From: Spirochaetia bacterium
GTDB taxonomy: Bacteria; Spirochaetota; Spirochaetia; CAKZLE01
Reading direction: 5' to 3'
NCBI GenBank assembly: GCA_021736385.1
Contig: JAIPFY010000002.1
Span: 35,780 to 99,779, forward strand
DNA length: 64,000 nucleotides
Position numbers and translations under genes: made by a program
The notes under the pieces: generated by a model
Databases searched by the model: none
Seen by the model: the letters and a program-made list of their open reading frames with translations, nothing else
What the model was told of the DNA's origin: nothing
Shown: in pieces, positions 60,488 to 64,000 of the stretch
Position numbering within the stretch: position 1 is the first letter of the stretch
How the letters are laid out: each line of letters begins with the position of its first letter

Positions 60488-60880
60488 ATGAATTGGTCTT
60501 TGATCGAACCTGATACGAAGACTGCTCTGGTGCATTATCGAAAGAGAGACCGGGTGGAGAAGCAGTTCGACATGTTGAAGCATATGATCGATGAGAGAAG
60601 ACTGCGGACCAACGGTCCGACAGCTCATGAATCGATCGTCTTCATACGATTCCTTTCACTCATCATCACAGAATACGTAAGAACAGTCTTGAAGGATACA
60701 CCGATCAAGGAGAAGAAGGAATCTGCAAAGAGATGGATCACCAGGTATACAGTGGCTGAGGTATTTGACAGACTTGAATCCTATACTGAAGTCTCATTCA
60801 AGGGACGATACAAACCCATTCGACCTACGAAGACAAAGGCCCAAAGAGAGATATTCAAGATCTTCGAACTAGACCAATGA
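60488..60880 (+). pseudogene. C-terminal fragment of an IS1634/IS4-type DDE transposase
   Basis: ALVHYRKRDRVEKQFDMLKHMIDERRLRTNGPTAHESIVFIRFLSLIITEYV; no N-terminal catalytic part found in the adjacent sequence I read. Confidence 0.7.
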
Positions 60881-61210
60881 TCGCCTAGCTGTAATTGTTC
60901 GAGATTTCAGGGTGATATCTCATGAGTTATAGGACAAATGAAGAATGTACGATACACATTGTTTCCCTTTGACCAACTGGCTACGTACTTTTGGCATGAA
61001 CACCTCCTGCATCAGATAACTATTAAATGATACAGAATGAGAAATGTAATACCATAGTACATCGATACGTCTGTATGGTTGTGTAGCATATTATTACATT
61101 GAGAATGCAGGTTTCAAAGAGATTAACTTAGCTTTTTACTAGCGTAACAGTGATTTTAGGGTATACTGGTGTTAGACTGTATTCGTTATTAGTGTAATCT
61201 GACAGGTGAG

Positions 61211-61229
61211 ACCGTACATCATGTACGGT
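61211..61229 (+). terminator. Terminator-like hairpin upstream of the disrupted cupin gene
   Basis: ACCGTACAT-C-ATGTACGGT followed by TTCTTCT. Confidence 0.5.
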
Positions 61230-61284
61230 TTCTTCTACCGTAATGTGATTACGTAGTCATTTATTGAAAAGGAGCTTAAACTAT

Positions 61285-61292
61285 GAATTATG
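61285..61292. repeat. Target-site duplication, left copy (GAATTATG)
   Basis: Identical 8-mer at 63033-63040. Confidence 0.93.
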
Positions 61293-61487
61293 GTAACTAC
61301 TCAGGTACCCGCAAAAAGAATGCTTGAAAACTAGTGTAATTTTCAGCCATCTGGCCTCACGATTTCCAATATGAAGTCATGCACAGAAACTCTCAATTTG
61401 ATTAATATTTCTCGTATATATAACGATTTACTGTTGTAATTAGTGGCCTAAAATGCTATAGTAACTCCTATAAGGAAAAGGAATTGT

Positions 61488-63005
61488 ATGGCATCAAAAG
61501 GCTCTAGGAGACAGACAAAAGGACTGCCGAATCACCCTCAGATTGAGGGTGATTCGGTGACTATGGAGCAGTTGATTGCACTTGTTTCCAAGCTGTCAGA
61601 TCAGATCACGGTGTTAACCGATACTATCACTGATCTCAAACAGACCGTTGTTGCAAAAGATAAGCGGATAGCTGAACTGGAAGCCCGGTTGAACAAAAAC
61701 AGCGGAAACAGCAATAAGCCACCAAGTTCTGACTTTTTCAGTAAACCAAAACCCTCATCGATCAACCAAGGTAAAAAACGGAAAAAATCGTCTGGTGGAC
61801 AGAAAGGCCATGCTGGTTCGACTATGAAGCTCAAAGATACTCCTGATGTCATCCGCCCCTGTCTTCCTGCTGACTGCATCGGTTGTGAGTGTGCTGGGCA
61901 CTGTGGAAGTACTGTTCGAGAGTCCCGACAGGTTGTGGATATCTGCATCACGAGTGAACAGAGCCGATATGATCTGATTGAACGTGTCTGTCCCAAAAGC
62001 GGAAAAACACTGGCAGGGGTATTCCCTGAAGGGGTGAATGCCCCTCAGCAATACGGGAACAACCTGAAGGCTATGGTGGTCACCCTCTCCTCATTTGGGA
62101 TGGTCAGTACCTCAAGGATCAGCGAGATGATGGGAGGACTTACCGGATTATCGATCAGTGACGGAACGATATGCAACATCCTTGCAGACTGTGCCAGACG
62201 CTGCACTGAGTTGCTCCCTGAATTGAAGAACAAGGTCAGATCCTCAGCTGTGGCCCATTTTGATGAGACCGGTATCAGGGTGGGGGGCAAGGTCCATTGG
62301 GCGCATACGGCTTCCACTGAACTGATAACTCTCATCAGTGCACATCAGAAACGGGGTGTAGCGGGTATCCTGGCAGGAGGAGTCCTCAAAGGGTATGAGG
62401 GCATTGCTGTTCATGATTGCTGGGGTCCTTACTATCATAAGGAGTTTGCTGGTATCCTGCATGCAGTATGCGGGGCACATATTGATCGGGAGCTGGAAGG
62501 GATCATACAGCATACGACTCAACGATGGCCGAGATCATTTAGGAGACTGCTGAAGAAGCTTTATGGTAGGAAGCGAAAGCTGTTAGCCCAGGGAATCGAT
62601 CATGCGTCGCCAGAAGAGATCGCTGAAATCTTCGAAGAGTATGATCGCATCCTGAAAAAAGGGTTTTCTCGAAACCCCTATCCGAAATCTGAACAGGTGA
62701 AACGGGGACGACCGAAGAGAGGAAAGATTCTTAGTCTGTTAGAACGACTGAGAGATTTGAAAGATTCTGTCTTACGGTTCTTCACAGACTTCAGGGTTCC
62801 CTTCTCGAACAACATCGGAGAGAAGAGCTTCCGCTTGAGCAAACTGAAAATGAAAGTGGCAGGATCCTTTCGATCGGATTCGGGTGGATCAAATTTCTGT
62901 ACGATCTTCTCGGTCATTGATACAGTCAGGAAACATGGTGGTAATCCATTCGAAGCCCTCTCAGCACTATTCACGAACTCATTTTCTCTAGATTTTCTCA
63001 GCTAG
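61488..63005 (+). CDS. IS66-family transposase (TnpC-type)
   Basis: NSGNSNKPPSSDFFSKPKP...GQKGHAGSTMKL, HFDETGIRVGGKVHWAHTAST, GIAVHDCWGPYYHKEFAGILHAVCGAHIDREL, VPFSNNIGEKSFRLSKLKMKVAGSFRS. Confidence 0.95.
   Translation: MASKGSRRQTKGLPNHPQIEGDSVTMEQLIALVSKLSDQITVLTDTITDLKQTVVAKDKRIAELEARLNKNSGNSNKPPSSDFFSKPKPSSINQGKKRKKSSGGQKGHAGSTMKLKDTPDVIRPCLPADCIGCECAGHCGSTVRESRQVVDICITSEQSRYDLIERVCPKSGKTLAGVFPEGVNAPQQYGNNLKAMVVTLSSFGMVSTSRISEMMGGLTGLSISDGTICNILADCARRCTELLPELKNKVRSSAVAHFDETGIRVGGKVHWAHTASTELITLISAHQKRGVAGILAGGVLKGYEGIAVHDCWGPYYHKEFAGILHAVCGAHIDRELEGIIQHTTQRWPRSFRRLLKKLYGRKRKLLAQGIDHASPEEIAEIFEEYDRILKKGFSRNPYPKSEQVKRGRPKRGKILSLLERLRDLKDSVLRFFTDFRVPFSNNIGEKSFRLSKLKMKVAGSFRSDSGGSNFCTIFSVIDTVRKHGGNPFEALSALFTNSFSLDFLS
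61527..61557 (+). repeat. 14-bp perfect inverted repeat inside the 5' end of the transposase CDS
   Basis: CCGAATCACCCTCA-GAT-TGAGGGTGATTCGG. Confidence 0.9.
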
Positions 63006-63032
63006 TCTCAGGGAAGGGACCTGAGTAGTTAC

Positions 63033-63040
63033 GAATTATG
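63033..63040. repeat. Target-site duplication, right copy (GAATTATG)
   Basis: Identical to 61285-61292. Confidence 0.93.
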
Positions 63041-64000
63041 AATCAAACAAACACCTGGTCAGATTCGCTGACCTCAAATATGCTCGAGCCGCATTCATCG
63101 ATGCTCGAATCCCGGGAAGCCATCTGAAAGAGAACTACTGTATCGTAGGGAAGGGTGTCTCTCAGGATTCTAGACAACCGATACATATCCTTGAGACCGA
63201 TGGTTTTCATCTTGGAGCAGCCGGACAACCACCGGGGATCCTTAACTCTCTCCATAGTCATCGTTCTGCCGAGATCTTCATGATCTACAAAGGGACTTTC
63301 AGGATCTACTGGGGAGCTGAGGGAGAGCATGAGGCATTTCTGGGTCCTGGTGATCTCATCACAGTGCCGGTCCATTGTTTCAGAGGTTTTGAGGTGGTTG
63401 GAGTCGAGAGCGGCTTCATGTTCGTCGTTCTTGGAGGAGACGATTGTGGAGGCGGGATCATCGTCCATCCATCAATCCTCTCAGAAGGGCAAAAATATGG
63501 CCTCTATCTGAAGAAAGACAATACTCTCGCAGATACGGTTATCGGTGACCCCATTCCAGAAGAGTCTGAACTCTTCACACCTTTGACTCCTGAAGAGGTC
63601 GCTGAGTATGACAACTTCACTGTAGAAGAGATGATGGAGCATGTATCATTGAAGAAAGACAGGACTGCCAGAGAGAGTCCTTTCACAGAGTCAGGTACAT
63701 TCAACTGTTACCATATTTCTGGTCACCCTGATCATCCTGATGCGTTTGAGGTACAAAGCAGGGACGGTCTCTGTGTCTATGGATATGAGATACCCGAAGG
63801 GGGTTATGTCCCCATGCACAGGAGAGTCGAGAATCAGATTCTGGTAAACTTCTCAGGTGATGTGAAACTTACCTTCGACGATCCAGAGTTGATGCCGATA
63901 ATTCTCGGACCTGGTGATACTTATGACCTTCCGAAAACTCTTGGGGTAGCGATAGAGGGTATACGAGAGACGGGATATATCTACTGTATGGTACATGGTG

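What the first reader, a model, noticed from the sequence alone, without database searches (positions are those of the whole stretch)
61283..63045. Recent IS66 insertion after codon 3 of a bicupin gene, with perfect 8-bp TSD
TIRs match at 16/17 and GAATTATG is duplicated exactly at both edges. Deleting 61293-63032 plus one TSD reconstitutes AAAAGGAG-N9-ATG AAT TAT GAA TCA AAC and an open frame to the window end. After insertion, the cupin frame from the IS end meets TGA at 63022 with no in-frame ATG/GTG/TTG nearby, so the gene is predicted to be inactive or expressed only by reinitiation.
Basis: seen in the sequence. Interest (0 to 1): 0.7.

Follow-up and report, generated by a model that had tools for sequence, protein, structure and literature searches.

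The report
Jumping gene interrupts a bicupin gene

Summary
A 1740-bp element (61293-63032) has 17-bp terminal inverted repeats (16/17), an intact 505-aa IS66-family transposase and an exact 8-bp duplication GAATTATG (61285-61292 / 63033-63040). Two more distant relatives (61-62%) also have the gene without the insert. Five other copies of the element type end at the same terminal base. Single ORF, TIRs and 8-bp TSD match the ISBst12 group (compare ISDge4, PMC12898284). The gene keeps its RBS and start but now makes a predicted 14-residue peptide; the next in-frame ATG/GTG/TTG is at 63280, inside the first cupin domain. Inactivation is predicted, not shown. 'Recent' is plausible but not datable. 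By-product: a palindrome TGANTACGTANTCA upstream of the gene is shared with relatives and recurs before transport and catabolic genes, so the lost gene probably belongs to a catabolic regulon. Ordinary IS insertion; low interest.

The parts
61162..61167 (+). candidate -10 box (TATACT; TATAAT in G001) of the bicupin gene
   Evidence: conserved in the nucleotide alignment with G001; promoter role inferred
61208..61232 (.). imperfect palindrome ACCGTACAT-C-ATGTACGGT upstream of the bicupin gene; also present in G001
   Evidence: (I8)
61246..61259 (.). 14-bp palindrome TGATTACGTAGTCA (TGANTACGTANTCA), probable operator
   Evidence: upstream of the bicupin in own genome, G001 and G068; 10 sites in four genomes, none for the reversed control pattern
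61283..61292 (+). start codon and first codons of the bicupin gene (ATG AAT TAT G), cut off from the rest
61283..61327 (+). predicted 14-codon fusion ORF MNYGNYSGTRKKNA* running from the bicupin start into the IS
   Evidence: read from the sequence
61285..61292 (+). left copy of target-site duplication GAATTATG
61293..63032 (+). complete IS66-family (ISBst12-type) insertion sequence, 1740 bp
61293..61309 (+). left terminal inverted repeat GTAACTACTCAGGTACC
61488..63005 (+). transposase, 505 aa, single ORF; D259, D310, E445 are the likely DDE residues (by motif)
61527..61557 (.). 14-bp perfect hairpin inside the 5' end of the transposase ORF
63016..63032 (-). right terminal inverted repeat
   Evidence: same end base in five other copies of the element type
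63033..63040 (+). right copy of target-site duplication GAATTATG
63034..64000 (+). rest of the bicupin gene, open to the contig end; cupin frame without its own start codon

Best explanation
A single-ORF IS66-family element of the ISBst12 type transposed into codons 1-3 of a bicupin gene, in the same orientation as the gene, and duplicated 8 bp of target (shown by sequence and by the empty site in relatives). The gene's upstream region and start codon are left on the far side of the element, so translation from that start ends after a predicted 14 codons, and the body of the gene has no start until residue ~84, inside the first cupin domain. The gene is most likely inactive (inferred). In three relatives the gene is followed closely by an alpha/beta hydrolase gene, so if that arrangement also existed here the insertion is probably polar (inferred; the contig ends at this point).
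For: TIRs and TSD; IS66 models. Empty site in G001: 76% nucleotide identity across the joined flanks, 835/1099, including upstream non-coding DNA, protein 84% identical. Uninterrupted homologues in G087 and G068, which begin MNYDSN and MDYSTN. Independent copies of the element type end at the same base. No second bicupin copy in the own assembly. dN and dS (NG86) for own against G001 are 0.096 and 3.0, with dS saturated. Polarised amino-acid changes are 22 own: 9 G001 for the bicupin against 38:20 and 23:21 for two housekeeping genes, so no clear relaxed constraint.
Against: Nothing contradicts insertion. Loss of function is not shown: read-through transcription plus initiation at a non-canonical codon, or at 63280, is possible. 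The element is single copy in the assembly, with only two ~82-83% 3' fragments elsewhere, so no near-identical donor copy supports very recent transposition. One assembly only, no reads.
Confidence: 0.95

Rival explanations
1. Assembly artefact: an IS contig joined by mistake to unrelated flanks.
For: Draft assembly of 113 contigs whose contig ends only 968 bases past the element.
Against: Both flanks belong to one gene in G001, collinear and uninterrupted, and an exact TSD sits at both edges. A mis-join would not produce this.
Confidence: 0.02
2. The insertion leaves the gene expressed: outward or read-through transcription from the IS, with translation from an unusual start, gives a functional or N-terminally shortened cupin.
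For: Element and gene lie in the same orientation, and the candidate transposase promoter (61434-61462) could read through. The body of the gene shows no lesion.
Against: No + strand promoter-like site near the right end. TGA at 63022 and no in-frame ATG/GTG/TTG before 63280, which lies inside the first cupin domain. A recent insertion explains the intact frame equally well.
Confidence: 0.12
3. Old, fixed insertion rather than a recent one.
For: Single-copy element; two diverged (82-83%) 3' fragments show that the family has been in this genome for a long time. Bicupin substitutions lean to the own branch, 22:9.
Against: Exact TSD, intact transposase ORF and no disabling change in the broken gene. 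The branch excess also occurs in a housekeeping gene (38:20).
Confidence: 0.15

Closest known systems
ISDge4 of Deinococcus geothermalis (IS66 family, ISBst12 group; PMC12898284)
   Same: Single-ORF transposase, TIRs GTGACTACTCAGCA / GTAACTGCTCAGCA against GTAACTACTCAGGT here, 8-bp direct repeat, insertion inside a metabolic gene.
   Different: ISDge4 was seen to transpose experimentally and has a 449-aa transposase; here 505 aa and no observed transposition. Sequences not aligned directly; related at group level by anatomy.
ISBst12 of Bacillus stearothermophilus (founder of the group; cited in PMC12898284, original not read)
   Same: Single-ORF IS66-family element that abolishes expression of a host gene (from the title of the cited paper).
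   Different: Sequence not compared directly here.
IS66-like copy in a Clostridia MAG (L042)
   Same: 66% identical over the best transposase segment; same right end CTGAGTAGTTAC; left end GTAAGTACTTAG.
   Different: Transposase frame broken, different insertion place, no 8-bp TSD (a 6-bp AAATTA abuts both ends).
Two-domain cupin proteins (PF07883)
   Same: The first cupin domain is recognised in the interrupted gene and in the G001 orthologue.
   Different: No NCBIfam family matches and only a weak match to quercetinase QueD among solved structures (E = 6e-4), so the substrate is unknown.

Membership tests
IS66 family | IS66-type DDE transposase | tested here: met
   NF033517 238.7 bits (cut-off 180), PF03050 128.2 bits
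IS66 family | 8-bp target-site duplication | tested here: met
   GAATTATG on both sides; the site occurs once in the G001 empty site, as GAACTATG
IS66 family | TIRs beginning GTAA | tested here: met
   GTAACTACTCAGGTACC / GTAACTACTCAGGTCCC
ISBst12 group | single ORF, no tnpA/tnpB accessory genes | tested here: met
   one transposase ORF in the 1740 bp, leaving 195 bp before it and 27 bp after it; group definition from PMC12898284
ISBst12 group | phylogenetic placement of the transposase with ISBst12 relatives | not tested
   no tree was built; no IS database on hand
IS66 family | active transposition | not testable with these tools
   no reads, no strain
bicupin | two cupin domains | tested here: inconclusive

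The most novel reading that the evidence does not exclude
The insertion may place the transposase under the bicupin's regulated promoter and conserved operator (TGATTACGTAGTCA, ending 25 bp before the left TSD copy), so that the catabolic inducer would also induce transposition, and precise loss could restore the gene: a substrate-linked switch.
Probability: 0.04. Interest if true: 0.4.

Novelty: new member of a known kind. Interest (0 to 1): 0.15.

Why it matters
It is a clean, checkable gene disruption with the empty site in hand, so this strain should be treated as a probable bicupin mutant in any metabolic reconstruction. The shared palindrome gives a lead to an uncharacterised catabolic regulon. 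The insertion itself is a routine event.

Tried and rejected
Close copies of the IS: none above ~83% in the own genome or in 398 genomes of the class, one 66% relative in genome contigs, none in viral contigs, plasmid matches all below 60% identity. Continuation of the operon on another contig: the G001 hydrolase and aldolase have only distant matches (25-33%) in the own assembly, so the downstream genes are missing or absent. Relaxed constraint after insertion: the branch test does not separate the bicupin from controls. The transposase hairpin as a conserved control element: the corresponding stretch of the best relative L042 reads differently, so no claim is made. 8-bp TSDs around relatives of the element: none found in L042, L064 or L066, so the TSD length rests on this copy and on the literature.

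Full report
Observation. The element at 61293-63032 is bounded by inverted repeats of 17 nt with one mismatch and by the exact 8-bp repeat GAATTATG at 61285-61292 and 63033-63040. It encodes one intact 505-aa protein that passes the IS66 transposase cut-off of NCBIfam and matches DDE_Tnp_IS66 and DUF6444 in Pfam. Likely catalytic residues by motif are D259, D310 and E445 (positions; assignment inferred).

Empty site. Joining the flanks with one copy of the repeat gives a continuous frame that begins MNYESNKHLVRFADLKYARAAFIDARIPG. The orthologue in G001, a genome of another genus in the same family, begins MNYESNKHLVRFADLEYARAAFIDARIPG. Its DNA aligns with the joined flanks at 76% over 1099 columns, from about 130 bp upstream of the start codon to the window end, with no insertion at the junction. 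The proteins are 84% identical. G087 and G068 have uninterrupted homologues at 62% and 61%. Only 4 of 398 genomes sampled from the class carry the gene, the own genome included.

Boundaries of the element. Five elements of the same type in other genomes align to the last base of this one, and their flanks then differ: L042, L064, L066, L067 and L068 end GTAGTTAC or GCAGTTAC. This fixes the right end independently of the TSD.

Effect on the gene. The candidate promoter, ribosome-binding site and ATG stay upstream, in the same orientation as the transposase. Translation from that ATG would give MNYGNYSGTRKKNA and stop. The rest of the gene has TGA at 63022 and no ATG/GTG/TTG before 63280, which is residue ~84, inside the first cupin domain. 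No + strand promoter-like site was found near the right end. Loss of function is the likeliest outcome, but it is a prediction.

Age. The exact TSD, the intact transposase and the undamaged frame of the broken gene fit a recent event. dS to G001 is saturated (about 3; dN 0.096), and the polarised amino-acid changes (22:9) do not stand apart from two housekeeping genes (38:20 and 23:21). There is no near-identical second copy, only two 3' fragments at 82-83%. 'Recent' is reasonable but undated.

Classification. A single ORF, GTAACTACTCAGGT ends and an 8-bp duplication agree with the ISBst12 group as described for ISDge4, whose ends are GTGACTACTCAGCA / GTAACTGCTCAGCA with an 8-bp repeat and one 449-aa ORF (PMC12898284). 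No tree was made, so group membership rests on anatomy.

What the gene is for. In G001, G068 and G087 the bicupin is followed by an alpha/beta hydrolase gene, and in G001 then by an HpcH/HpaI aldolase. In G087 it follows an SDR gene whose counterpart in the own genome (207 of 277 positions identical) lies in a TRAP transporter / Ldh_2 / creatininase-like / SDR / HpcH-like cluster on contig C78 (DctP by Pfam, the other names by sequence resemblance). That cluster and the bicupin share the palindrome TGATTACGTAGTCA upstream. The pattern TGANTACGTANTCA occurs at 10 sites in the four genomes, against none for the reversed control pattern, mostly before transport or catabolic genes: TRAP DctP, malic enzyme, Ldh_2, a solute-binding protein, a SnoaL-like protein; one site in G001 lies inside a coding frame. 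I infer a catabolic regulon for an unknown substrate. The regulator was not identified.

Verdict. The finding is correct and well described. It is an ordinary IS insertion with good comparative support.

Noticed in passing
window 61246-61259; L054 1501, L056 1501, L053, L058, L055, L057, L052, L049: Palindrome TGANTACGTANTCA upstream of the bicupin (three genomes) and of TRAP transporter, Ldh_2, malic enzyme and solute-binding protein genes; a probable operator of an uncharacterised catabolic regulon across families of the class.
   Followed up: partly
window 61208-61232: Second palindrome (ACCGTACATCATGTACGGT) upstream of the bicupin, kept in G001 as AACCGTACAATACGTACGGTT; role unknown.
   Followed up: partly
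window 61527-61557: 14-bp perfect hairpin inside the first codons of the transposase (fold z-score -4.85); not evident in relative L042.
   Followed up: partly
window 60488-60880: C-terminal fragment of an IS1634-family transposase (profile positions 371-482 of 483) between a dipeptide-type ABC transporter gene and the bicupin.
   Followed up: partly
L042, L064 and window right flanks: Right flanks of three copies of the element type read AAATTATT, AAATTATG and GAATTATG, which hints at an AT-rich target preference; L042 shows a 6-bp AAATTA at both edges, not 8 bp.
   Followed up: no
window 64000 (G000:C40 end): The contig ends about 10 codons before the expected end of the bicupin, and the genes that follow it in relatives were not found in the assembly.
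   Followed up: partly
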